From NCBI GenBank assembly GCA_013360465.1, contig JABWBO010000037.1, positions 1-64,000 on the forward strand: DNA of 64,000 nt, read 5' to 3'. Shown here one piece after another: positions 1,487 to 29,917 of this stretch. Numbering within the stretch: position 1 is the first letter of the stretch; each line of letters opens with the position of its first letter. This stretch comes from Anaerolineae bacterium. Its GTDB lineage: Bacteria; Chloroflexota; Anaerolineae; Aggregatilineales; Phototrophicaceae. The notes under the pieces are model-generated. The model made no database searches and was not told where the DNA came from. It worked only from the letters and a program-made list of their open reading frames with translations. A program made the translations under genes and the position numbers.

Positions 1487-1751
1487 AAGATGACTTGACA
1501 ATAGAACATGGTGCAAGCAAGTGCAAGTCGTGATGTGCACGCTGTTGCGGCGCCGTAATGATGCGGACCTATGGTCATAGTTGCCGGTGGCCGCAATTCC
1601 TTTGGCCGTCGCTTGTTTGATGCAGTATATTCAGAGACACACATGTGAACTTCAGCTTAATCAGAACTCGTGTCGCTGCGCTTTCTGATTACCAGGGTTC
1701 TGGGCTTCGTTTTGGTCTAACAATCTCAGCGTGTTAGGGTTCGGAGAGAGA

Positions 1752-4700
1752 ATGTCTTCTGCTTTCCCATTGAAGGAATACTCGATTCCCGAACAGGGAC
1801 AAATCGTTCAACTTCGCCATCGGCTTTGGATGGTCCAAGATGTTGTATCGGACACAGGCCGAGCGCCGGACGTACCTGTGTCTTATCGAGTTCAACTTGA
1901 ATGCCTAGACGACGACTCGATTGGCGCGACGCTCAATGTAATTTGGGAGAGTGAGGTCAGTCCACATATTTATGATGGACAAGGACTTCCCAAGCCGACT
2001 CAATGGGATGCGCCGGCGGTCTTTGAAAGCTTCCTTTCAGCAATCCGGTGGTCCACTTCATCCTTGCTGGAACGTGACGCGATCCTGTCACCTTTTCACG
2101 CCGCAATTGACCTTGAGGAATACCAACTTGAACCCGTGGTGCGGGCGTTAAGTCTCCCACGGGTAAACCTGCTGATTGCGGATGATGTCGGTTTGGGGAA
2201 GACGATTGAGGCGAGCCTAATTGTTCAGGAGATGTTGTCACGGCGCAGCATCCGACGAATCTTGATCGTATGTCCCGCCTCTTTGCAGCGTCAGTGGCAA
2301 GATGAACTGCGTGAGAAGTTCCAGCTCGATTTCCGGATAATCGACCGTGACAGCATCCAGCAGTTACGGCGCGAATTTGGGGTTCACGTCAATCCATGGT
2401 CTAGTCATCCTCGCCTGATCACCTCGATGGATTTCTTGAAGCGGGAACAGCCACTACGCCTTTTTCGCGAAGGGTTGCAGTCACATGACTCGCCGCTACG
2501 TGATTGGGATCTGCTAATCGTTGATGAGGCACACAATGCAGCCCCGTCTGGCAGGGCACGATACGCAGTAGATAGCGATCGAACCCGGATGCTGCGCGCT
2601 ATTGCCGACCATTTCGAACACCGACTATTCTTGACCGCGACACCGCACAATGGGTTCACAGAGAGTTTTACGGCGCTACTTGAAATTCTGGATCCACTTC
2701 GCTTCAGCCGGGGACCGACAGTGAACACAGAGCAGGTCGCCAGAGTGATGATTCGGCGCCTGAAGCGGCAGATCAAGAATGCTTTGGGGCGACGCAAATT
2801 TGCCGAACGAATCGTAGCTGCGATTCCTGTACGCTTGTCTGGGCGTGAACAACAGCTATACGATCTCCTTGATGCTTATACAGAATCGCGTTTGGAACGG
2901 CTGGAGCGTACGGATATTCTGCCCGTGAAGTTCGCGCTGATTATGCTGAAAAAGCGAATGCTTTCCTCGCCGCGCGCCTTTGTCCGCAGCCTCAATACAC
3001 ACATGACCACGCTCGGTGGTGGTGCGATGGGCGCAGATTCTCGTCTACTCGAACGCATGACTCAGCGCGTCAGTGAGGATTGGGCAGACGACACCGAAAA
3101 GTCCCTGGCCGAAGACGATGCTCTAGTCGAATCGAGCCGTTTTTTCACAGAACTAACACCCGCCGAACAGAGTTATTTGCGCCAACTTCAGGGGCTGGCA
3201 GCAGAGCTGCATGAAGATACAAAGCTTAATCATCTGATCGGTTGGATTGACGAGCATTTGCAGGCTGGCCAGAAATGGAAAAGTGAGCGGTTAGTGATCT
3301 TCACTGAATACAAAGACACGCTAGACTATCTTCTCGAACAGCTTACCACGCGCTACGGAACCGACCGTTTATTGTCTCTTTTTGGCGGCATGAACGGTGG
3401 AGATCGCGAGACAATTAAGGCAGCGTTTCAAGCTGATCCGGACGAACACTATGTGCGAATTCTTCTCGCAACGGATGCTGCCAGTGAAGGGTTGAACCTT
3501 CAAAATCACTGTCGCTACCTTATCCATTACGAAATCCCCTGGAACCCGATCCGGATGGAGCAGCGCAACGGGCGTATCGACCGGCATGGCCAGCAGGCGG
3601 AAACGGTGAATGTATTCCACTTCATCTACGAAGACCGCGCTGACTCCCAATTCTTGCAGACCGTGATCGATAAGGTTCAGACGATCCAATCCGATCTTGG
3701 TAGTGTTGGTGAAATCATTTCAGCGCAGGTTGAGAACGCGATGCTGAGCCGTGAGCATCGGCTGAACCTACCTGAGCATCGGCTTGCGTTGGCACAAGAG
3801 GCGCTTCGCACTGACCTGGTGACCGATGAACAAATCCGACAGATAAGGCGTCAGTTGGATCGAACACGACAGGTGCTTTCTCTTGACCCGCTAACGATGG
3901 CATCGGTGTTGGATAGTGCATTGCGGTTGCATAACCATCCGGGTCTAAGCAAAGCGACCGATCCTGTATTGAATGACCATGCCTATCAACTGCGCAACCT
4001 GCCACGCGGATGGAAAAAAGCTGAAAGGTCTTTGCAGGATGCGCGCGGCTCGTGGCTGGACATCACTTTTGATCATGCTCTTGCCCGCGAGCGGCGTGAC
4101 TTGACGTTACTGCACCTCAACCACCCACTGATGAAACTGGCGATCGGAACTTTTCGAGCCCGAGTGTGGGCAGAAGATGGTGAAGGTGGGCTGCACCGAG
4201 TCTCGTACCGTGTTCTCCCTGAGCTCAGCAAACCTGTTGTTCTGGCATATGGACGAATGGTCGTTGTTGGTGCATTGTCCTTGCGATTGCACGAATCGCT
4301 CATTTGTGTTGGCGGCGAAATCAATGAAGGACAGATCGATACCCTGTCGGCGGACGATATCACTCGGTTGCTCGACTTGAGGTATGAGCACCCAGCAATT
4401 TCGCGTTCGCTGGGGGATGATCTACGGCGTTTGTTTCCGATTCATCAGCGGGCGTTGATTCGGTTGCTGGAAGAGGAACAGAAGCGCCAGCGAATTGCCC
4501 TTGAGGAACTCGCTGTGCGGCGAGCTGATGAAGTCAGCGTCCAGATTCGGACATTGATCGATGAACGGATCAGGGAGATTCGTGAGCGCATTCATCGCGA
4601 AGAACATGGTCGGGCACCCGAACAGCAACTTGAACTGTTCGATCGAGATGAATTCCTACAATATGAAGAAGACATGGATTGGCTCAGGCAGAAGCGGGAC

Positions 4701-4832
4701 GCACTGATAGAACGGCGCAAGACAGAGCCGGAACGTGTGCGAAAGGGCTTCGAAATTCGCTCCGCAAGAGCGTTTCCACTGGCCCTGCTTTACCTGCTGC
4801 CTGCAAGTCTCGTTCGTGAAGAAGGGCGTTAG
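1752..4832 (+). CDS. SNF2-family helicase/ATPase, DISARM DrmD-like
   Basis: About 1026 residues from the ATG at 1752; an in-frame GTG at 1731 is an alternative start. Motifs of a Swi2/Snf2 DNA translocase are clear: ADDVGLGKTIEA (Walker A, about residue 143), VDEAHN (motif II, about 257), ATDAASEGLNLQ (motif V, about 573) and RNGRIDRHGQ (motif VI, about 606). A charged, helical C-terminal region follows. Size, domain order and the adenine methyltransferase immediately downstream match the first two genes of class 1 DISARM (drmD, drmMI), which is a restriction-type anti-phage system. The gene ends 2 bp before the next start, so the two are co-transcribed. It could instead belong to an unnamed relative of DISARM, because later genes of the island differ. 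Confidence 0.8.
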   Translation: MSSAFPLKEYSIPEQGQIVQLRHRLWMVQDVVSDTGRAPDVPVSYRVQLECLDDDSIGATLNVIWESEVSPHIYDGQGLPKPTQWDAPAVFESFLSAIRWSTSSLLERDAILSPFHAAIDLEEYQLEPVVRALSLPRVNLLIADDVGLGKTIEASLIVQEMLSRRSIRRILIVCPASLQRQWQDELREKFQLDFRIIDRDSIQQLRREFGVHVNPWSSHPRLITSMDFLKREQPLRLFREGLQSHDSPLRDWDLLIVDEAHNAAPSGRARYAVDSDRTRMLRAIADHFEHRLFLTATPHNGFTESFTALLEILDPLRFSRGPTVNTEQVARVMIRRLKRQIKNALGRRKFAERIVAAIPVRLSGREQQLYDLLDAYTESRLERLERTDILPVKFALIMLKKRMLSSPRAFVRSLNTHMTTLGGGAMGADSRLLERMTQRVSEDWADDTEKSLAEDDALVESSRFFTELTPAEQSYLRQLQGLAAELHEDTKLNHLIGWIDEHLQAGQKWKSERLVIFTEYKDTLDYLLEQLTTRYGTDRLLSLFGGMNGGDRETIKAAFQADPDEHYVRILLATDAASEGLNLQNHCRYLIHYEIPWNPIRMEQRNGRIDRHGQQAETVNVFHFIYEDRADSQFLQTVIDKVQTIQSDLGSVGEIISAQVENAMLSREHRLNLPEHRLALAQEALRTDLVTDEQIRQIRRQLDRTRQVLSLDPLTMASVLDSALRLHNHPGLSKATDPVLNDHAYQLRNLPRGWKKAERSLQDARGSWLDITFDHALARERRDLTLLHLNHPLMKLAIGTFRARVWAEDGEGGLHRVSYRVLPELSKPVVLAYGRMVVVGALSLRLHESLICVGGEINEGQIDTLSADDITRLLDLRYEHPAISRSLGDDLRRLFPIHQRALIRLLEEEQKRQRIALEELAVRRADEVSVQIRTLIDERIREIRERIHREEHGRAPEQQLELFDRDEFLQYEEDMDWLRQKRDALIERRKTEPERVRKGFEIRSARAFPLALLYLLPASLVREEGR

Positions 4833-4834
4833 CG

Positions 4835-7800
4835 TTGGCACATAACTCGCACGATTGGCTCTCGCTAGTCGAATTGTCTGGTCTGCTCATTTCCGAGCCA
4901 GTTTTGAACGAGAGCTTCGAGTCGGGAGCGCAGCCTCTAGACTTCTCTTTGGCGCGCCAGTTCCGGACGGAATTTGAGCGCTGGCGCGGCGCGACAGATC
5001 GCCAGGATGCCGAGGCGTTGCGCTCGGCACGCTCACGCTGGATTACGTTCATTCTTCGCGATCTACTCGCGTATGACCGAGCTCTGCGAGGGAGAATAGA
5101 GTTACCCCCACAGCTCAGAATTCAGCTTACCGATTATCTTCAAACACTTCAGCCAGATTACTTTGTCGTTGGCGCGGAGGGTGTTCCTGAACTTCTTGTA
5201 CTTGTAACTGAGGGCGAACTAGATCGTCCAGAACAGGTTACTGGACGTTGGAAGGCTTCCCCCTTTACCAAGATGGACCGGCTTCTGCGCGAGACGCGTA
5301 TTCCGCTGGGTATATTGACGAATGGCGATGACTGGCGGCTAATCTATGCGGCGCCTGGCTTGCCAACTTCGTACCTTACCTGGACGGCTGACGGCTGGAA
5401 TGACGAACGGTCCACCCTGAATGCTTTCGCCATGCTCCTGCGTTCTCCGGCCCGTCTGTTGGCAATGGCGAGCGAGAGCCAGCAGCGACAGGCGGATGTA
5501 ACGGATCAACTCGGTAATCAGGTCTTGAGTGCACTCTCGATCTTTGTGCGTGAACTGGACCGTGCTGATCTTGAAAACGGTGGAAAGCTTCTTGCTGAAG
5601 TGACGCCGGAACAAGTATACGAAATGGCGCTCTTCGTCATGATGCGGCTGGTCTTTATGTTCTACGCCGAAGAAAACGGACTGCTGCCTCACGGGGATGT
5701 CTTCTATGATCAAGCTTACGGCTTGACCCATCTGTGGAACCGGCTGGAGCGTGAACGCGCCGAAGACACTGATCGCTATGAGTTGCGCGAAGATGCTTAC
5801 CCGGGTTTATTGGCATCATTTCGCATGATCTATCACGGCTGCACTCACGCAGACTTTCGTATGGTCGCTTATGGGGGTGCGCTGTTCGACCCCGAAAGGT
5901 TTCCCGTCCTCGAAGATGCTCGCCTGCGAATTCGCAATTCAGCGTTAGGGAGGATACTAAGGCATCTGACCACGGCTGAGAGCAAAGACGGACGCCAGCG
6001 CGTCAGCTATCGGGCGCTTCAGGTGGAACAGTTGGGCTACGTCTATGAGAATTTGCTCGGCTATACGGTTCGCGCTGCGAAAGAGCTGATGATCCTGCCG
6101 TCCGGCGGACTGGAAGCACAGCCTTTGGCTGCATATGCAGCCGCGCTCGAAACGGAAACACTTTACGAGACTTTCAAGTCCCACACGAGGATGCATTGGG
6201 CGCAGGCGAAAGCACGAGCTGCGGATGCTGTGATGCGCTTTGCCTCTTCTGGCGATGCCGTCCACGCGCTTGACCCACTGGCGGATGATTTCATCCAGCC
6301 GGGACAACGATACATTGCTTTTCAGATGGGGACACGCAAACGCGGTGGTATCTTCTACACACCACCGCAGCTCACATCCTTTCTGGTTGAGCAGGCGCTC
6401 AAGCCGCAATGCTATGACGATGCTGACGGAGATGCGCCGCGCATTCGCAGCCCCAAGCATATCCTTTCGCTCACTGTCTGTGATCCGGCGATGGGATCAG
6501 GTGCTTTTCTGGTTCAGGCAGTACGTTATCTGGCGGATAGACTGCTGGAAGCATGGGACGCGGCAGCAATAACCGCCACCGGAGATACGAAACTGGTCAT
6601 GCCTTTTGCCGAGCCGGAGCGAACTGCAACTGAGAACGAAGGTGTAATCCCGACCGACCGCGCGGAAGCGACCGCTTGGGCGCGACGCCTGGTGGCAGAG
6701 CGCTGCATCTACGGCGTCGATCTCAACGGGCTGGCGGTTGAACTGGCGAAACTCTCCCTATGGCTGGTCACGCTGAGCAAAGACAAGCCGTTCACCTTCC
6801 TTGATGACCGCCTGAAACATGGCAATAGTCTGATCGGAGCGAGTTTCTTTGCCGAAACTGACCTGGAGATCAAGAAGGGTAAGATGACCGCGCAGGGCAG
6901 GGCGCGGCAGATCAGTTTCATACCTGATGCGGCGCTGGAAGCGCGCAGGGGTGCGACGAAGGACGAGAAAGCGACCGCGCGCAAACGCATTGACAGCAAC
7001 CGTACCGCGCAGGCGGCGATCCTTGCCGGCATGATGGACATGTTCGCCAATGTCGACTTTGCGGACGTGCTGCGCCACCTGGTTGACCAGACGGCGGACC
7101 TGAGTAAGCCGACGCGGAGTGCCGAGCAGTACCAGGACAAAGCCGACCTGTTGCGCCACTTGCTGAGCGAGGGAGACTATCCGGCGCTCAAAGAGATCGC
7201 CGACCTGTGGTGCGCGGTCTGGTTTTGGGAGCGCGACATTGAGGCGGCAGGGCTGCCGCCGACGACGCAGGAATATCACGATGTGATCGTGACCATCTTG
7301 GGATTGGTGCGCGGAATTGCCACGCAAGAAACTCGCATCCGCCAGATTCGTGACACTGCGAGACGGATCGCTGCGCAAGAGTATTTCTTCCACTGGGAAC
7401 TCGAATACCCATTTGTGTTTGCCCGGCATAACCCCGGCTTTGATGCGACAGTTGGCAATCCACCATGGGAAGTGGTTCAAGCAGAGCCACAAGAATTTTT
7501 CGAGGCATATGATCCGAAATTCAGGGACTACACAAAAGAGGAATCTCTCAAGATCGTGGAGAAGTACCTCTCAGACGACTCGGCAGTTGCTGACACTTGG
7601 TTTGAGTATGCTACAAGACAAGGCCGTCAGTCGTTTTACTTTGCTGCCGGAGTAGCATTCTGCTACCAAGGTTCTGGAAAATCGAGCACACACAAGTTGT
7701 TCGCTGAGCGTTTCTTTTGGCTACTGCGCGAATACGGGCGTATTGCCCTTATGATGCCTTCGGCGATCTACAGTGATCTTGGTACGAGAGAACTGCGTCG

Positions 7801-8962
7801 CCATTTTTTAGCAAATGGACGAATCATCTATCTTCTTAGCTTTAGCAATGAACGGTTCATTTTTCCACATGTTCACCATTTCTTTCGTTTTTCACTCCTT
7901 GGGATACAGAAAGGGGTGCAATCCACTCAATTCTTAGCGGCTTTTCGCTATGATCCACGGTTAGCGGTGACTGCCGAAGAGCTGCCTGATTTTATAGAAA
8001 ATGAACACAATCTCCTATCAATACCTGTTGATTCTATTACCCGATTCAGTCCGGATAGTTTCAGCATAATGGAATTTAGGAATCAAGAGGATCTAGATGT
8101 CTCCTCTAAGATTTATGGTGATCTGCCACTAATTGGGGAGCCAATTCCTTCACAGTGGGATGTTCGCTTCGGAATTGAGTTTCAGCTTAATGAGTACAGT
8201 CATATTCTACAGAATGAACCGCATGGACTTCCGCTATTTGAAGGCAAAATGATACATCAGTTCGACGCCTTCTATGATTCTCCCCAATACTGGATCGATG
8301 AAGAATCAGGACGTTCTGAGACTATTAGGAATGGAGTTGCTTCTTATGAACTATACAGATTCGTGTATCGTCGAATATCGAACAGCAGTAATGAGAGAAC
8401 GTTGATATCTTCTGTGATTCCAAAAATGTGTTTCACGTCTGCATCTGTCCCTCATAGCCTTCCGGGAAATGCTGAATATGGACATCTGCTATACCTGATC
8501 TCTTGTCTGAACTCATACGTGCTCGATTATTGCATTCGGCAAAAAGTCAGCACAACCATCAACACTGTATATTTGTATCAGCTTCCACTTCCGAGGCTTA
8601 CGCCTGGCAATCCATACTTTGCTGCTTTGCTCGATCGTTCTTTGAAGCTCAGTTGTACTTCTCAGCACTTTGCCGATCTGTGGTATGAAGTAACTGGCAT
8701 GGTTTGGCCGAACGATATCTACATTTGTCCGCCGCCTCGTACTGGGGATCTCGAGATCCATACGATACGACAGCGTCTACGTGACGAAAGCGACGCGCTG
8801 GTGGCGCACCTATACGGTTTGAGCCGAGACGATTTCGCTCATATCCTCGGCACGTTCCCGTTGGTCTTCCCAAATACCTCTGAAGGCGAAGCTAAAAAGG
8901 CTGCGCTGCTGGCAGTCTATGACGAGTACAACGAAATCACGGCGGGGTGGGCGCGTCAATAG
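4835..8962 (+). CDS. Large N6-adenine DNA methyltransferase (Eco57I/PglX-like; DISARM DrmMI-like)
   Basis: A 1375-residue protein. The start is a TTG at 4835, preceded by a GAAGGG ribosome-binding site that lies inside the end of the helicase gene, which suggests translational coupling. Methyltransferase motif I DPAMGSGAF sits near residue 550 and motif IV NPPW near residue 875, as in gamma-class adenine methylases that use S-adenosylmethionine. The N-terminal region (LLVLVTEGEL...LTNGDDWRLIY, about residues 125-170) resembles the domain before the methylase in type IIG/PglX-like proteins. The region after NPPW is a likely target-recognition part. In a defence role it would mark host DNA so that the neighbouring helicase/nuclease proteins spare it. 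No separate restriction subunit overlaps the gene. Confidence 0.85.
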   Translation: MAHNSHDWLSLVELSGLLISEPVLNESFESGAQPLDFSLARQFRTEFERWRGATDRQDAEALRSARSRWITFILRDLLAYDRALRGRIELPPQLRIQLTDYLQTLQPDYFVVGAEGVPELLVLVTEGELDRPEQVTGRWKASPFTKMDRLLRETRIPLGILTNGDDWRLIYAAPGLPTSYLTWTADGWNDERSTLNAFAMLLRSPARLLAMASESQQRQADVTDQLGNQVLSALSIFVRELDRADLENGGKLLAEVTPEQVYEMALFVMMRLVFMFYAEENGLLPHGDVFYDQAYGLTHLWNRLERERAEDTDRYELREDAYPGLLASFRMIYHGCTHADFRMVAYGGALFDPERFPVLEDARLRIRNSALGRILRHLTTAESKDGRQRVSYRALQVEQLGYVYENLLGYTVRAAKELMILPSGGLEAQPLAAYAAALETETLYETFKSHTRMHWAQAKARAADAVMRFASSGDAVHALDPLADDFIQPGQRYIAFQMGTRKRGGIFYTPPQLTSFLVEQALKPQCYDDADGDAPRIRSPKHILSLTVCDPAMGSGAFLVQAVRYLADRLLEAWDAAAITATGDTKLVMPFAEPERTATENEGVIPTDRAEATAWARRLVAERCIYGVDLNGLAVELAKLSLWLVTLSKDKPFTFLDDRLKHGNSLIGASFFAETDLEIKKGKMTAQGRARQISFIPDAALEARRGATKDEKATARKRIDSNRTAQAAILAGMMDMFANVDFADVLRHLVDQTADLSKPTRSAEQYQDKADLLRHLLSEGDYPALKEIADLWCAVWFWERDIEAAGLPPTTQEYHDVIVTILGLVRGIATQETRIRQIRDTARRIAAQEYFFHWELEYPFVFARHNPGFDATVGNPPWEVVQAEPQEFFEAYDPKFRDYTKEESLKIVEKYLSDDSAVADTWFEYATRQGRQSFYFAAGVAFCYQGSGKSSTHKLFAERFFWLLREYGRIALMMPSAIYSDLGTRELRRHFLANGRIIYLLSFSNERFIFPHVHHFFRFSLLGIQKGVQSTQFLAAFRYDPRLAVTAEELPDFIENEHNLLSIPVDSITRFSPDSFSIMEFRNQEDLDVSSKIYGDLPLIGEPIPSQWDVRFGIEFQLNEYSHILQNEPHGLPLFEGKMIHQFDAFYDSPQYWIDEESGRSETIRNGVASYELYRFVYRRISNSSNERTLISSVIPKMCFTSASVPHSLPGNAEYGHLLYLISCLNSYVLDYCIRQKVSTTINTVYLYQLPLPRLTPGNPYFAALLDRSLKLSCTSQHFADLWYEVTGMVWPNDIYICPPPRTGDLEIHTIRQRLRDESDALVAHLYGLSRDDFAHILGTFPLVFPNTSEGEAKKAALLAVYDEYNEITAGWARQ

Positions 8963-9175
8963 TTGTCGTCATATTCTGTGAAATATGTGAAAAATAGCCT
9001 GATGCATCGGGATCTTAAGTCAAATTAGGATCGCTTAACGGCTTATTCGTATAGACTGGAAATACTTTCAATCGCAAGTGGGCAGTCCTACTCGGATGAT
9101 TGTTGTTGCCTCGATAGCTCACGTTAAATAGTCTAGAGATGTTCTCTTGTGCAGTGATATCCACGGGAAAGCTGT

Positions 9176-10012
9176 ATGAGTACCGAACCACTCCGCGTCG
9201 CCCGAGAGCTGATCAAGGGGAAACGCTACGCTGAAGCGCGCGATCTGCTAGCTAGGGTCGATCATCCGACGGCTGCAAAATGGCTCGCAAAGCTGGATGA
9301 GTTAGCCCCTCAGACTCTGCAAAGAGCACGTGAGCTCATTGATCAGGGGGAGTACCGCGAGGCCCGTTTCCTCCTGCAATCGCTCAACAATCCGACGGCC
9401 AAGCGTTGGCTAGCTAAGCTCGAGGAACTTGTGCCGGAGGCAACTGCGAATCACGCCCCCGCGCAAGTGGACGATTATGTTGATATGGATACGATTCAGC
9501 CGGTTCGTGTCGTTGCCATGCCTGGAATAATGGAAACGCCGAAAAGGGCAACCAAGCGTTGTCCATACTGTGCGGAAGACATTCTTCTTGAGGCAGCGGT
9601 CTGCCGTTTTTGTGGCCGGGATCTGATTTCCCAACCTCTTATCCCCGTACCCGATGTTCGCCCGCAACTTCAAAGCATGCATGCCGAACTGCTGCATACG
9701 CGAAACATTATCCAGACGCTGGAATTCCGGACACGGCAGCTCGATGAGCAGATTTCTCTGCGAAAGATCAACTACGCTGCGCTGATAGTAGGGTTCATTA
9801 TCCTGTGGTTCTTTGTGCCAATTGTCGAGTTGATGTGCTTGCTCTTGATACTGGCCGGCATAGGAATATGGTATGCCGACGATCAGACCAGCAAGCTTCG
9901 CATAAAAAAGGGAGCAATACTCGACGATCTCAGCGGCCTCTATGAGCGTCAAGGAGCACTGGAACAAAGCATTGCACAGCTAGAAATTGGCATCAGAGGA
10001 ACAGGATGGTAA
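9176..10012 (+). CDS. Zinc-ribbon membrane protein with N-terminal helical repeats
   Basis: A 278-residue protein starting a second transcription unit 213 bp after the methyltransferase. Residues 1-90 hold two copies of a helical repeat (RELIKGKRYAEARDLL and RELIDQGEYREARFLL, each followed by a PTA-x-x-WLAKL segment). A zinc ribbon CPYCAEDIL...CRFCGRDL lies near residues 123-145. After a helical stretch come two adjacent hydrophobic segments (YAALIVGFIILWFF and CLLLILAGIGIWY), then a second helical tail. It would place a small zinc-binding scaffold at the membrane. The stop lies 7 bp before the next start, so it belongs to the same operon as the helicase and nuclease genes. I do not recognise a named family; its role in the island is unknown. 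Confidence 0.7.
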   Translation: MSTEPLRVARELIKGKRYAEARDLLARVDHPTAAKWLAKLDELAPQTLQRARELIDQGEYREARFLLQSLNNPTAKRWLAKLEELVPEATANHAPAQVDDYVDMDTIQPVRVVAMPGIMETPKRATKRCPYCAEDILLEAAVCRFCGRDLISQPLIPVPDVRPQLQSMHAELLHTRNIIQTLEFRTRQLDEQISLRKINYAALIVGFIILWFFVPIVELMCLLLILAGIGIWYADDQTSKLRIKKGAILDDLSGLYERQGALEQSIAQLEIGIRGTGW

Positions 10013-10019
10013 GTGCAAA

Positions 10020-13000
10020 ATGTCTCTAAACCCTGTCCAATTTGGAAAAGATGTTATCGATCAGTTCGGTCGTTATCTGCTGACGACTTTTCCCATCGCC
10101 GATGATCGTCTCTCGGCACAGGTGCGGGAACGATTACGCCACAACGTGGGCAGTGACCCACTGTTGTATCGAGGACCATACGTTTACCTGAACCGTCCAT
10201 TTGAGCCGGGACCAGAGATCGAGAGCCTGATTGCTCAGGGTAAGCTTCATCCGGTCATGCGCGCGGTCTTCCCATACGAGTCGCTGCACTTTCATCAGGC
10301 CCAGGCAGTTGAAGCTGTACAGGCCGGAAATCACCTGATCCTGTCGACCGGCACCGGTTCTGGCAAGACGGAAGCATTCATGCTTCCCATTGTTGACCAC
10401 TGTCTTAGGTTGCGAGACGAGAATGCTCCACCGGGGGTTGCCGCTGTGCTGGTTTATCCGATGAATGCGCTCGTCAACGACCAGTTGGAGAGGCTTCGCT
10501 GGTCCCTTGCCGGCACACGGGTGACATTTGGGCGCTATACAGGGGAGACGCCACGGGCGTATTCGGAGACGACGATCACCCTCAACGCGCCGGTTGCTTA
10601 TACGTCCCTTCAGCGTGAGCAATATAAGGATGGCAAAGCTGATTTCGGCTCAGAGGTTTTGCCGCTGCCCTGGGAAGAGTGTTACGATACAGCGACCATC
10701 CGTGAGAAGAAGCCCCGCATCCTGCTGACGAACTACGCGCAGTTGGAATACCTGCTGCTGCGCGACAAAGATCTTGATCTGTTTCGCGGTTCGCCCCTAC
10801 AGTTTATTGTCTTTGATGAAGTTCATACCTATACAGGCGCGCTCGGCTCGGAGGTCGCTTGCCTGATCCGACGTCTGCGTGATGTGGCGGGGAAGTCGTC
10901 CACCGATGTGACGATGATCGGTACTTCGGCGACCGTCAGCAGCAAACCTGACGACGAAGGAAACGCTATTGATGCTGAGGCAGTGACAAGGCGTTTCGCC
11001 CATCGGCTTTTTGGCGTGCCACAAAAAGACATTGTCGTCGTGAGGGAGACGTATCGCGATTTTCCACATCTCGATACGTATTTGCCGCCGCTGCCGAACG
11101 ACATGCTTGGACTACTCGATGCGATTCTCAAGGCGGCGCGGGTTATCCAGCTTCAGACAGAAATTGAACCGGATGATATACCTGCTGAATTGATCGAAAG
11201 AACGGCAGCTTTGTGTGGTCGCGCTACAGGCTCTGATGCATCAGGTATGGCTGCCTTGAGCGAGTTACTGGCCAACAATCGCTGCATCGCTCGCCTCGGC
11301 ACGATTTTTGATGAGCCGCGTGCCTGGGATGAGACACTTCCAATATGGCGCAGACTTGGCGCCGGACGCGAATTCGCATCAGAACCGGAGCTCATCGCCG
11401 AAATGCTTGCCTACCTAACGCTCGGCGCTCTTGCCACTGTCGACGGCGACCCTCTCTTGCGCCCCAAGCTGCACTACTTCGTGCAGGGCTTACAGGGATT
11501 GGGTATCAGTTTCCAGACAACTGGTGACCCAGAACTTAGCTTCAGTGACAATCAGTCGATTCCACCTCTCATGCTGTGTCGATCATGTGGTCAGCATTAC
11601 ACGCGTCTCTTGGTCACGAACTGGACAACATCGAATGACAGCCATTTCAGCTATCGTTCTGCTCGAATCCCTCGACCGTTTGAAGAGCCAGCCGGCGAAT
11701 GGAAGTGGCTGTATTTAACCGATCGTTTTCATACGCAGGATGACGAGGAAAGTGCAGATGAAAAGTGGGAAAAAGCTTTCGTCTGTACTGCGTGTCAGAC
11801 CGTTCACGAGAAGAATGAACCCCGCTGCCTCAATCCACACTGCCGCCAAACGGGAACTCTCGTCGCACTCTTCGCTTTCAATCTCGATGGTGGGGGGCTT
11901 CCAAAGCGCTGTGGGGCATGCGGAGGCCTGAACTCCGAACACATGCCGATCATCAGCTACACACGCAGCGCTGCGGTTGCTGACGTGACCATTCTGGCAC
12001 AGTCAATGCTCACGATGATGAGTGAGCAAGCCTTGCGAAAAGTGCTGATCTTCGCGGATAGTCGCCAGGAAGCGGCATTTCAAGCTGGCTGGATGGACCA
12101 GCGAGCCAAGCGCTTTCGGATGCGCCACTTGGCTTACCAAATCGCGCGCGAAAATGATGCGCCCCTCAACTGGGATGATTTCGCCTTTGAGATCAATGCC
12201 CGTGCAATGCAGTCTGGCATCTTCAGTCAGCGTGATTTCAACGACCGGGAGAACATGGCTCGTGCGCACTGGTTCTTGGTCGAAGAACTCGCTTTCGTCA
12301 CCCAGCGACGCAGCAATCTGGAACAACTGGGGTTGATCGGTATCACCTATGGTGACCTGGACCGGGGGGAAGATCCGTTTTTTCAACAGTGGGCGGATGA
12401 ACTCGGCGTGTCGCCCGAGGCTGTAGTCAACGTCACCCAGCTTCTCCTGGATGTGTTCCGGCGGCGCGGCATGTTGAGCGACGAGCTATTGTCACGTTGG
12501 TGGGACAATAAGTTCCCTGAAGTGTTCAAGGGCATCATCAATGTGCCTGAGTACTACCGTCCATCGGCTCTGGTACTGCAAAATGTCGCACGCAATGGGT
12601 CACTGAAAGGTTGGCGCGCACAAAATGGGCGATCACTGGCTCAGGTTGTTACAGAAAAATCCCTGAAGAAGATCGCTGGAGGATTGCGAGATCGCTTCTT
12701 GGATGCACTCTGGAGTTGGCTGGTCGATCAGCAATATCTTATCCCTGTTCTGTTGACACAGCGGCGTTACGGTAGAGTTGAACCGATTCCAAATCTGCCT
12801 GATGCAGTCTACCAAGTCAATGTGAATCGTTTGGGAATCCGTGAGGTTCACCAGCGATATGTATGCAGTCATTGCCACCGAGCTCAGAGTGTGATGACGA
12901 ACTCCAGAAACTGCCCTGAGTATGGATGTGCAGGAACTTTGCGCGAAGAGGGGCGCGACCACGAGCACTTTGACGTATACCAGTACACACAAGTCAAAGA

Positions 13001-15305
13001 ATTCGTCCCGATGATGGCACGCGAACACAGCGCACAGGTCCCTCAGGATCGACGGCAAGAAGTCGAGCGGCAGTTCAAGTCGGACTCTGGCAACATCAAT
13101 ACCATCGTCGCTACACCCACCCTAGAAATGGGCGTGGATATCGGGCGACTGGAAATGGCAATGATGCGGAATGTTCCGCCAACGCCAGCCAATTATGCCC
13201 AGCGAGCAGGGCGCGCTGGCCGACGACATCGTATCGGCATTGTCATGACCTATGCCGGGTCGAGCCAGCACGACCGCTATTTCTATGCCGATCCACCGCA
13301 GGCGATAGCCGGTGAAGTACGTGTTCCCACGTTTTCGATGCAGAATGCGCCACTCATTCGCAAACACGTTCATAGTGCAACGCTTACTTTGCTTCGTGAA
13401 TGGGTGACCTTTAACGAACGAGCCATTCTTACGAAGACCTTCCCCTCGTTTATCAGGGACTATCTCACCGAATGGGTCGAAGATGAGGGGCAAAAGCGAA
13501 GCCGGTTTTTTGATGCGGCAATGACGTTTCCTGAATTCCGCAGACTTCTGGAAGTCTATCATTCTCGGCTGCTCGAGCGACTGATCAAACTATTCCGAAG
13601 TGATTGGACGCCGGACGATCTTGATGCGGTTAGCCCCGCTGTATTGGAAACCTACTTGCGCGAAATGCCCGATCTGCTTGAACGGCATGTACGACTGCTG
13701 TTTAATCAGGTGCGCGCCTATCGAGGCGAACTTGACAGGTTACGGAGCATCGAGAGCCTGAACAAGGATGAAAAGAAACGTCGCCAGCGCTACGAACAGG
13801 CACTCGATTCCTATCTTCGTGAGGATATTGGCAACTATGCTCTGTCTTGGCTTGCTGTGGACGGCTTTTTCCCCGGCTATGCCTTATCACGCGAAACAGT
13901 TCAGGCCACGAGCTTGCAGCCATTCATGGAGCTATCGCGTCCGGCGCCCGTCGCCCTGCGTGAATTGACTCCGGCGAATCGCGTTTATGCGGACGGGCGA
14001 ATCTTCAGCGTACAGCGCATGAATTTCGGTCGTCTCAAGGCGGATGACAATCGCTTCAGCTCAGACACCCTGCGGGAAGAGATGCTGTTCGACATCGAGA
14101 AACAACGCCTGTTCAGTCCTAAGGCTGTGCCGACGGAAGGCGGAAACACCAACATTCAGTCGATCACATCGTATCGACTGACCGACGTCGAAATGGAGCA
14201 GGCAGAGAGCATCAATGACCAAGTCGAAGTGAGGCACCGTATCGCATTCGACATTCGCGGCATGTTGATGGATAGCCACAAAGGTGGCCTGCATGGACGT
14301 GTTGGAGGACGTCAGTTCCGGTTCTTACGTGGCGAGACTGTGAGGTTGGTCAACCTGGGCATGATCAAACCAAATCCTGTTGGTGTTCAGGGTTTTCCAC
14401 TATGTCCCGTTTGCGGTGAGACTCGCTCTCCGAACAACCTCTCGCTTGAGGAATACAACCGATTTCGTACGCAGCATAGTGAACGTTGCGGCATTGACAG
14501 CGTTGGTTTCTTTAGCCTCCATGTAGATCTGAACTCTGATGTCTTGTGCATTGGGCCTTACGAAGAGATAGATCACGCGGTCAACGCCTATGAAGGTTTG
14601 CTCATAGGTGCGCGTAACGTCCTCGATATGAGCGGAGGCGAATTAGAAGGCTTCTTCTACCCCGACGACACCGGGGCGATTTGGGCTGTGATCTACGATC
14701 CACTTCCGGGCGGTACGGGATTCTTCGATCAGCTACTTGCGCACTGGGATCGAGTCTGCCATGAAGGGATCGCCGCGCTTGAGCGGTGTGATTGTGAAAC
14801 AGCCTGTTATAAGTGCCTACAGAATTTTCGTAACCAGCAATATCACGATTCGCTTGATAGACGAATGGCCATTGAGATCCTTGCGGATCTTCGAGGAGAA
14901 CCGCAGAAAGAGCACTCTATACCTGCACCTAAGATCAACGACACCGGACGAAGAACTGCTCAAGAGAAGGCAGAGAGCCCTGCTGAAGATCAGTTCTTGG
15001 CGCTTCTTGCGAAACGTGGTTTTCCTGTGCCCACCGCAAGTCAACATAGGGTAGAGCTAGGCAATGGAAACTTCACGGTCGCGGACTTCGCTTGGCCAGA
15101 AAAGGGACTGCTAATTTTCATAGATGGCACGTCTCCCGGTTTGCATGGCGACCCTGACCAGGCGCGACGGGACCGCAATAAGCGTCGTCAAGCGAGGATG
15201 CTGCACTATCAGGTGGTTGAGATCACTGCGCAAGAGTTGAAAGACGAGCTGATGATTGCGGTCAAGTTGGAAGATATCGAGTTCATTCTTTCGCAGGAGA
15301 TCTGA
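10020..15305 (+). CDS. Giant DEAD-box/DUF1998 helicase with C-terminal Vsr/DUF559-like nuclease (DruE/DrmAB-like)
   Basis: A 1761-residue protein, with the start set at the ATG at 10020. Helicase motifs are STGTGSGKTEAF (about residue 109), FDEVHTY (about 264), EMGVDIGRLEMAM and AQRAGRAGRR (about 1060). Several zinc-binding Cys clusters (CRSCG, CTAC...CLNPHC, CGACGG, CSHC...CPEYGC) are scattered through the middle. The Cys-rich DUF1998 signature CDCETACYKCLQNF is near residue 1590. The last 110 residues (ADFAWPEKGLLIFIDG then ARRDRNKRRQARML) resemble the Vsr/DUF559 endonuclease fold. Helicase plus DUF1998 in one chain is the hallmark of Druantia DruE and of DISARM DrmA+DrmB combined. The nuclease tail suggests that it both moves along and cuts DNA. 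The stop overlaps the next start (TGATG). Confidence 0.8.
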   Translation: MSLNPVQFGKDVIDQFGRYLLTTFPIADDRLSAQVRERLRHNVGSDPLLYRGPYVYLNRPFEPGPEIESLIAQGKLHPVMRAVFPYESLHFHQAQAVEAVQAGNHLILSTGTGSGKTEAFMLPIVDHCLRLRDENAPPGVAAVLVYPMNALVNDQLERLRWSLAGTRVTFGRYTGETPRAYSETTITLNAPVAYTSLQREQYKDGKADFGSEVLPLPWEECYDTATIREKKPRILLTNYAQLEYLLLRDKDLDLFRGSPLQFIVFDEVHTYTGALGSEVACLIRRLRDVAGKSSTDVTMIGTSATVSSKPDDEGNAIDAEAVTRRFAHRLFGVPQKDIVVVRETYRDFPHLDTYLPPLPNDMLGLLDAILKAARVIQLQTEIEPDDIPAELIERTAALCGRATGSDASGMAALSELLANNRCIARLGTIFDEPRAWDETLPIWRRLGAGREFASEPELIAEMLAYLTLGALATVDGDPLLRPKLHYFVQGLQGLGISFQTTGDPELSFSDNQSIPPLMLCRSCGQHYTRLLVTNWTTSNDSHFSYRSARIPRPFEEPAGEWKWLYLTDRFHTQDDEESADEKWEKAFVCTACQTVHEKNEPRCLNPHCRQTGTLVALFAFNLDGGGLPKRCGACGGLNSEHMPIISYTRSAAVADVTILAQSMLTMMSEQALRKVLIFADSRQEAAFQAGWMDQRAKRFRMRHLAYQIARENDAPLNWDDFAFEINARAMQSGIFSQRDFNDRENMARAHWFLVEELAFVTQRRSNLEQLGLIGITYGDLDRGEDPFFQQWADELGVSPEAVVNVTQLLLDVFRRRGMLSDELLSRWWDNKFPEVFKGIINVPEYYRPSALVLQNVARNGSLKGWRAQNGRSLAQVVTEKSLKKIAGGLRDRFLDALWSWLVDQQYLIPVLLTQRRYGRVEPIPNLPDAVYQVNVNRLGIREVHQRYVCSHCHRAQSVMTNSRNCPEYGCAGTLREEGRDHEHFDVYQYTQVKEFVPMMAREHSAQVPQDRRQEVERQFKSDSGNINTIVATPTLEMGVDIGRLEMAMMRNVPPTPANYAQRAGRAGRRHRIGIVMTYAGSSQHDRYFYADPPQAIAGEVRVPTFSMQNAPLIRKHVHSATLTLLREWVTFNERAILTKTFPSFIRDYLTEWVEDEGQKRSRFFDAAMTFPEFRRLLEVYHSRLLERLIKLFRSDWTPDDLDAVSPAVLETYLREMPDLLERHVRLLFNQVRAYRGELDRLRSIESLNKDEKKRRQRYEQALDSYLREDIGNYALSWLAVDGFFPGYALSRETVQATSLQPFMELSRPAPVALRELTPANRVYADGRIFSVQRMNFGRLKADDNRFSSDTLREEMLFDIEKQRLFSPKAVPTEGGNTNIQSITSYRLTDVEMEQAESINDQVEVRHRIAFDIRGMLMDSHKGGLHGRVGGRQFRFLRGETVRLVNLGMIKPNPVGVQGFPLCPVCGETRSPNNLSLEEYNRFRTQHSERCGIDSVGFFSLHVDLNSDVLCIGPYEEIDHAVNAYEGLLIGARNVLDMSGGELEGFFYPDDTGAIWAVIYDPLPGGTGFFDQLLAHWDRVCHEGIAALERCDCETACYKCLQNFRNQQYHDSLDRRMAIEILADLRGEPQKEHSIPAPKINDTGRRTAQEKAESPAEDQFLALLAKRGFPVPTASQHRVELGNGNFTVADFAWPEKGLLIFIDGTSPGLHGDPDQARRDRNKRRQARMLHYQVVEITAQELKDELMIAVKLEDIEFILSQEI

Positions 15306-18300
15306 TGTTCGAGGTTGGCGAAATTGTAAGCCTGAAAGTCGACAGTAGCCGGCAGGGTCCAATTATCGAGATCCTTTCGCAGGTGGCAGGCAAGACGCGC
15401 TATAGGGTATTCCATTCGCCGGCTGACATGCCGATCTACTTTGAGGATCAGATTGTGTCAGCGTCGGGGGAGGTAGCGGATCCATTGGTGGATGCGTTGC
15501 TGAATGGTCGATGGGTCAGCCCGGAAACATTTCGTGCCCGACTCACTGCTGCCCGTCTAGCCCATCCTCAGACCGATCATGTGTATGCGCTGCATGCAGC
15601 ACGCGTGAAATACGTCCCCTTCCAGTTCAAGCCATTGCTTCGCCTTCTTCGTTCTGACCGTCCGAGATTGCTGATAGCAGATGAAGTTGGCGTAGGTAAG
15701 ACGATCGAAGCTGGACTCATCCTGAAAGAGCTTCAGTCCCGACAGCAGGTTGACAAGGTTCTGATTATCTGTCCGAAAGCGCTCGTGCAGAAGTGGCGTG
15801 CAGAGATGCGCCGTTTCGATGAGGATTTTCAGATACTTGCCCCTGAAACGCTTCAATACTGCATCAGTGAAACAAATCTGGATGGCGTCTGGCCCGCCCA
15901 GTATCGCCGCGCGATTGTGAATCTTGAACTCATCCGGAGTGATGCCGTTCTTGCGGGAAATGACAGAAAAAAGGGCCTTCTCACACTCAGCCCTCCTCCT
16001 CAGTTCAGCCTGATTATTGTGGATGAGGCACATCATCTGCGAAACCCACAGACGAATTCATATGAGGTCGCAAGGTATCTCTGTGATGTGGGAGACGCAG
16101 TACTTTTCCTATCTGCGACACCTATTCAAACGGCTTCTCACAATCTATTCGCATTGCTTCATTTGCTTCGCCCCGATCTATTTCAGGATTTTGGTGTGTT
16201 TCAGGCAATGGTTGAACCGAACCAGCATATCAACCAAGCTATTCGGGCGATACGCGGCAGTCATGCTCACCTCAGTTGGCAAGAAGACGTACGTTCGGCG
16301 TTTCAATCGGCGGTGGCCACAGAATGGGGAAGGCAGATACTGGCTACCGACGAGAATTACATGTTCTGGCGTGACCGAATGGCTGATACCACGCCTCTTT
16401 CCGATTGGGAACGGGTTCGTTGCCTGCGTGACCTCGAAGAAATGCATACGTTGGCGCATCTTGTTAACCGAACTCGGCGGCGCGATATCGGACGATTTAC
16501 CATACGCGAACCCCGTACAATTGCTGTGCCGTTCACATCCGCACAGCAGGCGTTCTATGAAGCGCTGATTGAGTTCAGGCGCGATTTGTATGCGCTTGCC
16601 TATGGTGAACAAGTCGCCCGCATGATCACTGACACGCTTGAAAGACAGGCGTCTAGCTGCCTTCCTGCGATGGCAAGCTCACTAGAATCCCTAGTCCGTG
16701 GCAGTGCCTTCTCGGTTTCAACGCTTACTGATGATACAGAATCGGACGACACTGCATTCGTTGAATTGGCACCAGTGCTTGCCCGTCTCAAGCACTTACA
16801 AGAACTGGCGACCGGCCTACAAGATGAAGATCCAAAGCTTGACCAACTTACTGAGATAGTTGACCGTGCGCTTGCCGATCCGGGCTCTGGAAAGGTTCTG
16901 TTGTTCTCTTTCTTTTTACATACGCTCGAGTATTTGAAGCGCCGATTGTCACGTCGTGGGTATCGCGTTGAGCTCATCACCGGAAAAACGCCCGATCATG
17001 AGCGCGAACTATTGCGAAATCGTTTTGCTCAGCCTCGGGAATATCTGGACACAGTTGATATGTTACTTTCCTCAGAAGTTGGCTGTGAGGGGTTAGACTA
17101 TCAGTTCTGTGATCGTCTTGTGAATTACGACATCCCATGGAACCCGATGCGCGTAGAGCAGCGTATTGGACGCATTGATCGCTATGGGCAGCTCAGCGAT
17201 AAGGTATTGATCTACAACTTCATCACTCCTGGAACTGTTGAAGAACGGATCTATTTCCGGTGTTTTGATCGCCTTGGCATCTTTAATGACACGCTTGGCG
17301 ACCTGGAAGAAATCATGGGACAAGTCATGGATGAACTCGATGATGCTGCATTGTCCATCTACTTGAGCCCTGAGCAATCAGAAGCGAAAGCCCTGCAAAC
17401 CGCAGACAACACTATTCGGTTAGCTGAAGAGCAGCGCCGCATCGAAGACGCTGGTTATGTCTCGTTCAGTCTTGAGCAGTCCTTTGCGGACGATATTGCT
17501 CGTCTAGAAGCAGAAGGAAAGTTTGTTTCACCGACAGATCTTAGGCAGATGGTTGGCGAGTTCCTAGAGGACTCAGTGCTGGGAGGACGCTTAACCCCAG
17601 ATCCACAAAACACAAGCGGATACAAGATTCGTCTTGCACGCGACTCACGAGGAAAGCTAATTGATCAAATGCGTACCATGCAACTATATGGTAGATCTGC
17701 CCAGATATTTCGAAGATGGCTGGAGAGTGATGAAGCATCTATTACAGTCACATTTGATCAGAACACTGCTTCTGATTTTCGCTACATGGAATTCATCACC
17801 CCATTGCATCCGTTAACCCGCATAGCTGTAGCGGCCCAGAACGCTGTAGTCGATCCTCTGGTGACATCAGTGCTCACAACTGGAGATGCTTCGGGAAACT
17901 TTCTGATCGCATACGATATTTGGGAGAGTATCGCAGTGCAATCCGATCTGCGTTTGGTTGCTCTGGCCTGGGATCTCGATACAAACATGCCAGTGAGCGG
18001 GGGCCATGCTGAGGCACTATCTCGACTGATACATGAGGCTGATTACGCACCGTATCAGGTTACGCAGCAGTTGAAGGAGAGGTTCCAGCAGGCGATCTTG
18101 CACATCGATGAATATCTCTACCAGATGCGCCAATCTGACTTGTCGGAACTTCAAATTCGTAATCGAAAGTTGCTTGCGCGTCGGTTAGGTAGTCTGGACT
18201 CATACTATCAGAGGCGAAAGGACCGAGTTCATGCAGACCTGGAACAAGCTACCGAACCCCGAATCCAACGGATGAAAAAGTCCGAATTGCAGCGCGTCGA

Positions 18301-18403
18301 ACATGAATATGCAGCGCGGCGGAAAGAGATCGAAGCACGGGGAAATGCGGATATCATCACGAAGCGGATTGCACTTGCAGTGCTGACTATTGAGGCCCAG
18401 TAG
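15305..18403 (+). CDS. Second SNF2-family helicase/ATPase
   Basis: A 1032-residue Swi2/Snf2 protein, distinct in sequence from the one at 1752. It has ADEVGVGKTIEAG (Walker A, about residue 125), IIVDEAHHLRN (motif II, about 239), SSEVGCEGLDYQ (motif V) and EQRIGRIDRYGQ (motif VI, about 617). A long helical C-terminal region is rich in charged residues. It overlaps the preceding gene by one base and is followed after 2 bp by the ATPase/HNH gene, so the three must be co-translated. Two SNF2 motors in one island is unusual. It may serve the DUF1998 helicase as the other SNF2 serves the methyltransferase, though this is inference. Confidence 0.8.
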   Translation: MFEVGEIVSLKVDSSRQGPIIEILSQVAGKTRYRVFHSPADMPIYFEDQIVSASGEVADPLVDALLNGRWVSPETFRARLTAARLAHPQTDHVYALHAARVKYVPFQFKPLLRLLRSDRPRLLIADEVGVGKTIEAGLILKELQSRQQVDKVLIICPKALVQKWRAEMRRFDEDFQILAPETLQYCISETNLDGVWPAQYRRAIVNLELIRSDAVLAGNDRKKGLLTLSPPPQFSLIIVDEAHHLRNPQTNSYEVARYLCDVGDAVLFLSATPIQTASHNLFALLHLLRPDLFQDFGVFQAMVEPNQHINQAIRAIRGSHAHLSWQEDVRSAFQSAVATEWGRQILATDENYMFWRDRMADTTPLSDWERVRCLRDLEEMHTLAHLVNRTRRRDIGRFTIREPRTIAVPFTSAQQAFYEALIEFRRDLYALAYGEQVARMITDTLERQASSCLPAMASSLESLVRGSAFSVSTLTDDTESDDTAFVELAPVLARLKHLQELATGLQDEDPKLDQLTEIVDRALADPGSGKVLLFSFFLHTLEYLKRRLSRRGYRVELITGKTPDHERELLRNRFAQPREYLDTVDMLLSSEVGCEGLDYQFCDRLVNYDIPWNPMRVEQRIGRIDRYGQLSDKVLIYNFITPGTVEERIYFRCFDRLGIFNDTLGDLEEIMGQVMDELDDAALSIYLSPEQSEAKALQTADNTIRLAEEQRRIEDAGYVSFSLEQSFADDIARLEAEGKFVSPTDLRQMVGEFLEDSVLGGRLTPDPQNTSGYKIRLARDSRGKLIDQMRTMQLYGRSAQIFRRWLESDEASITVTFDQNTASDFRYMEFITPLHPLTRIAVAAQNAVVDPLVTSVLTTGDASGNFLIAYDIWESIAVQSDLRLVALAWDLDTNMPVSGGHAEALSRLIHEADYAPYQVTQQLKERFQQAILHIDEYLYQMRQSDLSELQIRNRKLLARRLGSLDSYYQRRKDRVHADLEQATEPRIQRMKKSELQRVEHEYAARRKEIEARGNADIITKRIALAVLTIEAQ

Positions 18404-18405
18404 CC

Positions 18406-25500: not shown

Positions 25501-25682
25501 CCCGACGGGCTGACTATCCTCTGCTCACTGTCGTCGCGTATTACGGACATCCGCCTCCTCCACCTTCAGGGGGCAAGCTTCAGCCGGTGCGGTGGTAAGC
25601 ACTTTGATGAGTCTATTCAGACATACTTGCGATACCTGCGAGTGTTGTGCGCTATGATGAAACAGAAAGGACGAGCCGCACA

Positions 25683-26651: not shown

Positions 26652-26660
26652 GATGGATGT

Positions 26661-28106: not shown

Positions 28107-28122
28107 AACGAGGAGAAAGACA

Positions 28123-29915: not shown

Positions 29916-29917
29916 CT

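What the first reader, a model, noticed from the sequence alone, without database searches (positions are those of the whole stretch)
10020..15305. DUF1998 helicase fused to a C-terminal Vsr/DUF559-like nuclease
The last 110 residues show the Vsr-like pattern (ADFAW, LLIFIDG, then RRDRNKRRQ) directly after the DUF1998 Cys cluster. A helicase with its own nuclease would explain the missing separate nuclease gene.
Basis: partly seen in the sequence, partly recalled or inferred. Interest (0 to 1): 0.6.

Follow-up and report, generated by a model that had tools for sequence, protein, structure and literature searches.

The report
ARMADA defence helicase with built-in nuclease
A bacterial gene joins a DNA-unwinding motor to a DNA-cutting domain inside an anti-virus gene cluster; the join is real, and it belongs to a family of defence systems that was described in 2025.

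Summary
The ORF at 10020-15305 (+) is an intact 1761-aa YprA/MrfA-type helicase whose last ~120 residues form a Vsr-type endonuclease domain. No Pfam model finds this domain in the window protein. Related C-termini reach DUF559, MTES_1575 and, rarely, Vsr; their profile finds 3hrl, I-Bth0305I and Vsr in the PDB; the AlphaFold model (pLDDT 88) matches 3r3p (Z 12.7) and 1cw0 (Z 9.9). The fusion is not new in kind: the gene follows a BrxHII/DrmD-like SNF2 helicase and a PglX-like methyltransferase, the ARMADA layout (Bell et al. 2025, PMC12458937), whose YprA helicases are reported to end in a predicted active Vsr nuclease. Model libraries name the parts DISARM DrmD and Druantia DruE. Unusual here is a second, separable pair (SNF2 helicase + sacsin-ATPase/HNH) joined by a TGATG overlap. 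Nuclease activity, substrate and coupling are inferred, not shown.

The parts
10020..15305 (+). YprA/MrfA-type SF2 helicase with C-terminal Vsr-type nuclease (ArmC-like), 1761 aa; the focal gene
14607..14819 (+). MZB (DUF1998) zinc-binding domain
   Evidence: Pfam PF09369 E 3.8e-10 (aa 1541-1611 counted from TTG 9987)
14937..15302 (+). Vsr-type (EDxHD-like) endonuclease domain, aa 1640-1761
14985..14987 (+). E1656, falls on Vsr Glu25 (numbering and catalytic role recalled)
   Evidence: 77/77 sequences with a residue; 6 gaps
15084..15086 (+). D1689 (the Asp of ADFAW), falls on Vsr Asp51
   Evidence: 83/83
15123..15125 (+). D1702 (the Asp of LLIFIDG), falls on Vsr His64
   Evidence: 79/81; 2 gaps
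15144..15146 (+). H1709, falls on Vsr His69
   Evidence: 78/78 with a residue; 5 gaps
15171..15173 (+). D1718 (the Asp of RRDRNKRRQ), falls on Vsr Asp97
   Evidence: 78/80; 3 gaps
1731..4832 (+). BrxHII/DrmD-like SNF2 helicase (ArmA-like)
   Evidence: PADLOC DrmD 1094 bits; NCBIfam NF038317 1061 bits, cut-off 610; DVGLGKT and DEAH intact
4835..8962 (+). PglX/DrmMI/type IIG-like adenine methyltransferase (ArmB-like)
   Evidence: PADLOC DrmMI E 2e-208; Eco57I PF07669; DPAMGSGA and NPPW motifs intact
9176..10012 (+). Small zinc-ribbon, probably membrane-bound protein between methyltransferase and helicase; likely accessory
   Evidence: weak zinc-ribbon and TPR hits, all below cut-off; no homologue at E 1e-5 in the 87 ARMADA-branch loci examined; membrane segment read by eye
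15305..18403 (+). Second SNF2 helicase; its ATG overlaps the stop of the focal gene (TGATG)
   Evidence: paired with a relative of the next gene in L176 and L182
18406..21543 (+). Sacsin-type ATPase with HNH-like C-terminus
   Evidence: SACS PF25794 E 5e-20; NF047352 E 1.6e-26 and PT-DNA_restrict E 3.4e-5 below cut-off; HNH_2 E 0.0057 below cut-off

Best explanation
The gene at 10020-15305 is the YprA-like helicase-nuclease of an ARMADA-type anti-phage system: 1731-4832 is ArmA-like, 4835-8962 ArmB-like, 10020-15305 ArmC-like. The MrfA-like motor most likely loads on 3' single-stranded or otherwise exposed DNA of an invader and moves along it using ATP. The tethered Vsr-type domain then cuts the DNA with a metal-dependent active site (E1656, D1689, D1702, H1709, D1718). 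The PglX-like methyltransferase and SNF2 helicase probably provide or read the mark that spares host DNA. Shown here: gene order, intact motor and methyltransferase motifs, nuclease fold (predicted model), conserved catalytic columns, recurrence of the same gene set. Shown by others for relatives: an E. coli ARMADA Type II needs all four of its genes, and several motor mutants and the NPPW mutant lose protection, while two other point mutants lose it only partly (PMC12458937); Druantia III DruE unwinds 3'-tailed DNA and cuts long DNA, but carries PLD domains (PMC13192584). Inferred: that this Vsr domain is active, its substrate, loading polarity, and methylation-based self-protection.
For: Gene set: 64 of 78 ARMADA-branch loci with at least 3 kb of flank on one side also hold a hit above 55 bits to the SNF2 helicase or the methyltransferase; L046 (genome G317) has all three in the same order at 54, 41 and 45% identity. 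Phylogeny: 119 helicases, 1384 columns, FastTree, midpoint root; window clade with L046, L056, L057, L079, L082 at support 1.0. The branch that holds the window has 88 members at 0.982: 78 carry the Vsr-type end and 67 have a partner in the locus; of the other 31, 0 carry it and 1 has a partner. Nuclease: profile hits 3hrl 3e-5, 3r3p 6e-5, 1cw0 5e-4, 1vsr 2e-3; model pLDDT 87.6; Z 12.7 over 97 residues at 2.5 A to 3r3p, Z 9.9 over 104 residues to 1cw0. Conservation: D1689 83/83, E1656 77/77, H1709 78/78, D1702 79/81, D1718 78/80. Literature: ARMADA Types I and II carry a 'predicted active Vsr' C-terminus; the order SNF2-methyltransferase-YprA is reported for Type I of many archaea and cyanobacteria.
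Against: No Pfam family finds the domain in the window protein itself. Foldseek has no PDB match below E 1e-3; its best is 2.3e-3. In VIA-align a mitoribosomal protein (9g6k_L9, Z 9.7) ties with Vsr, so the fold match alone does not prove a nuclease. Vsr's His64 column is Asp here. Two relatives, L075 and L130, have lost most catalytic residues. 14 of the 78 loci show no partner gene. The join of the window clade to the Type I-like clade has support of only 0.482. The BrxA-like insertion that marks this lineage could not be confirmed. No Vsr mutant is mentioned in the preprint's activity section. The 83 sequences were chosen by matching the domain profile, which favours conserved ones.
Confidence: 0.88

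Rival explanations
1. The helicase belongs to a Druantia (Type III-like) system and the Vsr domain is one of the occasional Vsr ends reported for that branch.
For: Best PADLOC model is DruE3 (359 bits). PMC12458937 says some Druantia III-like helicases end in a Vsr nuclease.
Against: Two helicases of the Druantia-like side score far higher on DruE models (1486 bits for L155, 717 for L098), though DruE scores do not separate cleanly: L029, on the ARMADA side, reaches 552. The tree separates the window from the Druantia-like side (0.982). The SNF2 + methyltransferase partners are ARMADA's. No DruH model is among the hits listed (best 25 per protein).
Confidence: 0.05
2. The locus is a DISARM Class 1 system, as the annotation of its first gene suggests.
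For: NCBIfam NF038317 (DISARM DrmD) 1061 bits, cut-off 610, for 1731-4832; PADLOC DrmD 1094 bits and a model named DrmA (PDLC02572) 875 bits for the same gene, DrmMI for the second.
Against: DISARM has a helicase and a separate OB-CON-DUF1998 protein plus a PLD nuclease. Here helicase and MZB are one protein with a Vsr end; on it DrmA models reach only 56 bits, over motor segments. Pfam finds no PLD domain in the six genes.
Confidence: 0.03
3. The Vsr-like domain is a degenerate DNA-binding or structural domain, not a nuclease.
For: PMC12458937 calls the Vsr ends of Druantia I and II inactivated; L075 and L130 have lost catalytic residues; the window has Asp where Vsr has His64; a mitoribosomal protein matches the fold at Z 9.7.
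Against: All five catalytic columns are retained in the window and near-invariant in 83 sequences, which a purely structural role would not explain.
Confidence: 0.12
4. All six genes 1731-21543 act as one composite system with two nucleases (Vsr and HNH).
For: Six same-strand genes with gaps of 2-7 nt or an overlap, apart from a 213-nt gap before 9176; TGATG overlap at 15303-15307.
Against: In 87 ARMADA-branch loci examined (62 with at least 3 kb downstream) the second SNF2 helicase gives one 50-bit partial hit and the sacsin protein three partial hits. Relatives of the two genes pair without ARMADA in L176 and L182.
Confidence: 0.2

Closest known systems
ARMADA Type I (Bell et al. 2025 preprint, PMC12458937; abstract, sections 5-9, 12 and figure legends read; passages; supplement not seen)
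   Same: YprA-like helicase with a C-terminal predicted active Vsr domain, BrxHII-like SNF2 helicase, PglX-like methyltransferase; the SNF2-methyltransferase-YprA order is reported for many archaea and cyanobacteria
   Different: The window helicase sits in its own subclade whose join to the Type I-like clade is unresolved (0.482); a zinc-ribbon gene and a SNF2 + sacsin-HNH pair are added
ARMADA Type II
   Same: Same core trio and order; Vsr domain after the MZB
   Different: The helicases that I take for Type II here are about 2100 aa and form their own clade of seven (1.0); six of the seven were checked and are followed by a ~700-aa ORF, UvrD-like in the two tested; the window has a SNF2 gene there instead
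Druantia Type III DruE (PMC13192584 preprint; abstract, two sections and passages read)
   Same: YprA-like motor, MZB zinc module, C-terminal nuclease
   Different: DruE III has two PLD domains and works with DruH
Vsr endonuclease (1cw0) and EDxHD homing endonuclease I-Bth0305I (3r3p; EDxHD label from passages of PMC3943268)
   Same: Fold (Z 9.9 and 12.7); in Vsr the E, D, H, D columns coincide
   Different: Fused to a helicase; Vsr's His64 is Asp here; the H1709 column is Ala in the 3r3p chain
DISARM DrmD / DrmMI
   Same: The first two genes match these models
   Different: Helicase and DUF1998 part not split; no PLD domain by Pfam in the six genes

Membership tests
ARMADA | BrxHII-like SNF2 helicase and PglX-like methyltransferase next to a YprA-like helicase | tested here: met
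ARMADA | YprA helicase in the ARMADA branch, apart from Druantia | tested here: met
   support 0.982 in a 119-sequence, midpoint-rooted tree; branches named by me from partner genes and length, no named reference sequences included
ARMADA | C-terminal Vsr domain with catalytic residues kept | tested here: met
ARMADA | BrxA-like helical insertion after RecA1 (lineage mark) | tested here: inconclusive
   aa 346-505 model pLDDT 89.7 is helical; BrxA 7zge appears at Z 3.1 among unrelated rows; profile finds a solved helicase 9tu7, E 1.6e-7
ARMADA Type I | Clade membership with Type I rather than Type II | tested here: inconclusive
   outside the Type II-like clade (1.0) but the join to the Type I-like clade has 0.482
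ARMADA Type II | GajB-like UvrD helicase (ArmD) after the YprA gene | tested here: not met
   next gene 15305-18403 is SNF2
Vsr-type endonuclease fold | Fold and E/D/H/D active-site columns | tested here: met
   Vsr's His64 column holds Asp, so the set is a variant
Vsr-type endonuclease fold | DNA cleavage | not testable with these tools
   needs biochemistry
Druantia | DruE-clade helicase | tested here: not met
   separate in the tree; DruE score 359 bits versus 717 and 1486 for two Druantia-side proteins, but 552 for the ARMADA-side L029
DISARM | Helicase and DUF1998 part in separate genes, with a PLD nuclease DrmC | tested here: not met
   single helicase-MZB protein; no Pfam PLD domain in the six genes. 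PADLOC PLD_Helicase and NCBIfam phospholipD_antiphage models do hit both SNF2 genes, over the helicase stretches
TALON | YprA with C-terminal RNase H fold, with NERD nuclease, TPR-CSD and TBP genes | tested here: not met
   C-terminus is Vsr-type. No NERD, CSD or TBP family above threshold in the genes scanned; weak TPR hits below cut-off in 9176-10012 and a TOTE-type primase next door

The most novel reading that the evidence does not exclude
The six-gene run is one composite machine: an ARMADA helicase-nuclease of a lineage that is neither Type I nor Type II, translationally coupled to a second helicase-nuclease module (SNF2 + sacsin-ATPase/HNH), so that two different nucleases and three motors act on the same marked or unmarked DNA.
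Probability: 0.15. Interest if true: 0.5.

Novelty: new member of a known kind. Interest (0 to 1): 0.3.

Why it matters
It supports, with an independent alignment and structure match, that the built-in Vsr nuclease of ARMADA helicases keeps a full catalytic set over wide phylogenetic distance, and it names the residues to mutate. In the preprint's activity section the E. coli ARMADA was probed in its motors and methyltransferase and no Vsr mutant is mentioned, so the nuclease step looks open and this window supplies a clean test case. It also shows that current model libraries give ARMADA parts DISARM and Druantia names.

Tried and rejected
Pfam on the C-terminus alone gives only hits that I take for chance. 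The BrxA-like insertion test was inconclusive: BrxA 7zge is listed only at Z 3.1. Megablast of a presumed Type II helicase against E. coli found no match, so no E. coli anchor is in the tree, and I named the branches myself from length, partners and the downstream ORF. Paper searches for a sacsin system with SNF2, HNH or helicase returned 0, 2 and 1 papers; passages of PMC3710099 do not describe this pair, and PMC8195603 was seen in the listing only. Vsr residue numbers come from the alignment plus recalled numbering; Taylor et al. 2011 on I-Bth0305I is not held. The H1709 column is Ala in the 3r3p chain; I recall, unchecked, that this crystal may be of an inactivating mutant.

Selections that favour the reading: the 83 C-termini are those, of 155 helicase ORFs (window included), that pass the iterated profile; the other 72 include fragments, truncated ends and proteins with no domain or another one. 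Near-identical pairs (L103/L117, L113/L134) are counted separately. Of eight loci looked at for the second pair, only L176 and L182 hold both genes: L177 and L181 show the sacsin relative alone, L178, L179 and L180 the helicase relative alone, and L183 lists no helicase in its annotation.

Full report
What is there. The + strand at 10020-15305 is an unbroken gene for 1761 aa (TTG 9987 would add 11 aa). Its stop overlaps the next start by one base (TGATG at 15303-15307) and it starts 7 nt after the previous stop. Pfam finds DEAD, Helicase_C and MZB above cut-off, and the motor motifs are intact. The last ~120 residues, after the Cys cluster, have no Pfam family in this protein.

What the C-terminus is. 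An iterated profile finds the same domain in 83 of 155 related helicase ORFs, window included. Five positions stand out: E1656 (77 of 77 with a residue), D1689 (83 of 83), D1702 (79 of 81), H1709 (78 of 78) and D1718 (78 of 80); R1722 is 65 of 80. A profile without the window and the four rows nearest to it still finds the window at E 7.8e-25, against 0 of 1550 shuffled ends and 4 of 7857 other ORFs below 1e-3. Member by member, 26 of 54 reach DUF559, 19 MTES_1575 and 3 Vsr at E up to 0.1. Against PDB sequences the profile hits 3hrl, 3r3p, 1cw0 and 1vsr between 3e-5 and 2e-3. That alignment puts the five conserved columns on Glu25, Asp51, His64, His69 and Asp97 of Vsr (numbering and catalytic role recalled). 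Position 1700, where 3hrl has the Glu of its ExDG motif, is Phe or Tyr in 76 of 82 sequences with a residue there, as in Vsr. The model of aa 1640-1761 has pLDDT 87.6 and pTM 0.79. Foldseek ranks 3r3p first at E 2.3e-3, with nothing below 1e-3; VIA-align gives 3r3p Z 12.7, 1cw0 9.9, 3hrl 9.6 and 1vsr 9.2, and a mitoribosomal protein, 9g6k_L9, ties with Vsr at 9.7. The fold match plus the catalytic columns make it a Vsr-type domain with a complete, slightly variant, active site.

What system it belongs to. Upstream on the same strand lie a DrmD/BrxHII-like SNF2 helicase and a PglX/DrmMI-like methyltransferase. The set recurs: in 64 of 78 ARMADA-branch loci with at least 3 kb of flank on one side, at least one partner is present, and L046 has all three in the same order. 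In a 119-sequence tree the window helicase groups at 1.0 with L046, L056, L057, L079 and L082. The branch that holds it has 88 members (0.982): 78 carry the Vsr-type end and 67 have a partner; of the other 31, none carries it and one has a partner. Type II-like helicases form a clade at 1.0; the join of the window clade to the Type I-like clade has 0.482. Bell et al. 2025 (PMC12458937; sections 5-9, 12 and the figure legends read) define ARMADA by this trio, report a C-terminal 'predicted active Vsr' domain for Types I and II, and report this gene order for many archaeal and cyanobacterial Type I loci. The window is therefore ARMADA, not Type II (the next gene is SNF2, not UvrD), and closest in layout to Type I. 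Such helicases are rare around it: at E up to 1e-60, 11 of 301 genomes drawn from the phylum and 9 of 199 from the class have one, the window's own included. The host is probably Anaerolineae: a 7166-bp contig marked 'same class' matches a record titled Anaerolineae in length and ORF coordinates.

How it likely works. By analogy with DruE III, which loads on 3'-tailed DNA and cuts long DNA with ATP and Mg2+ (PMC13192584; abstract, two sections and passages read), the motor probably threads an exposed 3' strand and the Vsr domain cuts it; the methyltransferase and SNF2 helicase probably distinguish self. Motor and methyltransferase dependence is shown for an E. coli Type II system. For the window protein the nuclease step is inferred.

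What is unusual here. Downstream lie a second SNF2 helicase and a sacsin-ATPase protein with an HNH-like C-terminus. None of the 87 ARMADA-branch loci examined carries this pair: one 50-bit hit to the helicase and three partial hits to the sacsin part. Relatives of the two genes stand side by side without ARMADA in a genome of the same phylum (L176, order reversed) and on a Methanomethylovorans plasmid (L182), at 32-37% identity over 648-1052 residues; in six other loci looked at, only one of the two was seen. So it is most likely a separate module that became attached.

Verdict. As a kind of protein it was described before; as a test case for a nuclease step that looks untested it is useful.

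Noticed in passing
window 15305-21543: SNF2 helicase + sacsin-ATPase/HNH gene pair; relatives stand side by side without ARMADA in L176 and L182 (Methanomethylovorans plasmid), so it may be an independent two-gene defence module. Not found described in the searches (one listed paper, PMC8195603, not opened).
   Followed up: partly
window 491-1540 (-): TOTE-type archaeo-eukaryotic primase domain plus CHC2 zinc finger, divergent from the ARMADA run.
   Followed up: no
window 21707-23530 (-): Serine recombinase (Resolvase domain, 607 aa) directly after the gene run, a possible mover of the island.
   Followed up: no
window 25647-32347: WYL regulator, Cas7/DevR-like and Cas3 genes, probably a type I CRISPR-Cas locus next to the island.
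   Followed up: no
L018, L019, L021, L023, L057, L082 and window 8963-10019: The stretches between the core ARMADA genes often hold unrelated small genes (Uma2, PIN, VapBC, Rpn, NYN and others), as if they were an insertion spot.
   Followed up: partly
L082:10001-11338: A truncated copy of the helicase's start, then two small ORFs that look like a nucleotidyltransferase and its partner (read by eye), precede the full helicase gene.
   Followed up: no
L137, L140, L141, L145, L148, L162 (IMG/VR contigs): ARMADA Type II-like sets in contigs classed as viral, each with a ~700-aa ORF right after the helicase; UvrD-like in the two tested, L145 and L141.
   Followed up: partly
window 1731-4832 and NCBIfam NF038317: The ARMADA SNF2 helicase scores above the cut-off of the 'DISARM DrmD' model, so ARMADA loci may be annotated as DISARM.
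   Followed up: no
PDB 9tu7 and 9wae: Solved helicases of 2108 and 1970 aa match the window helicase (E 1.3e-57 and 1.4e-27); which systems they come from was not settled.
   Followed up: no
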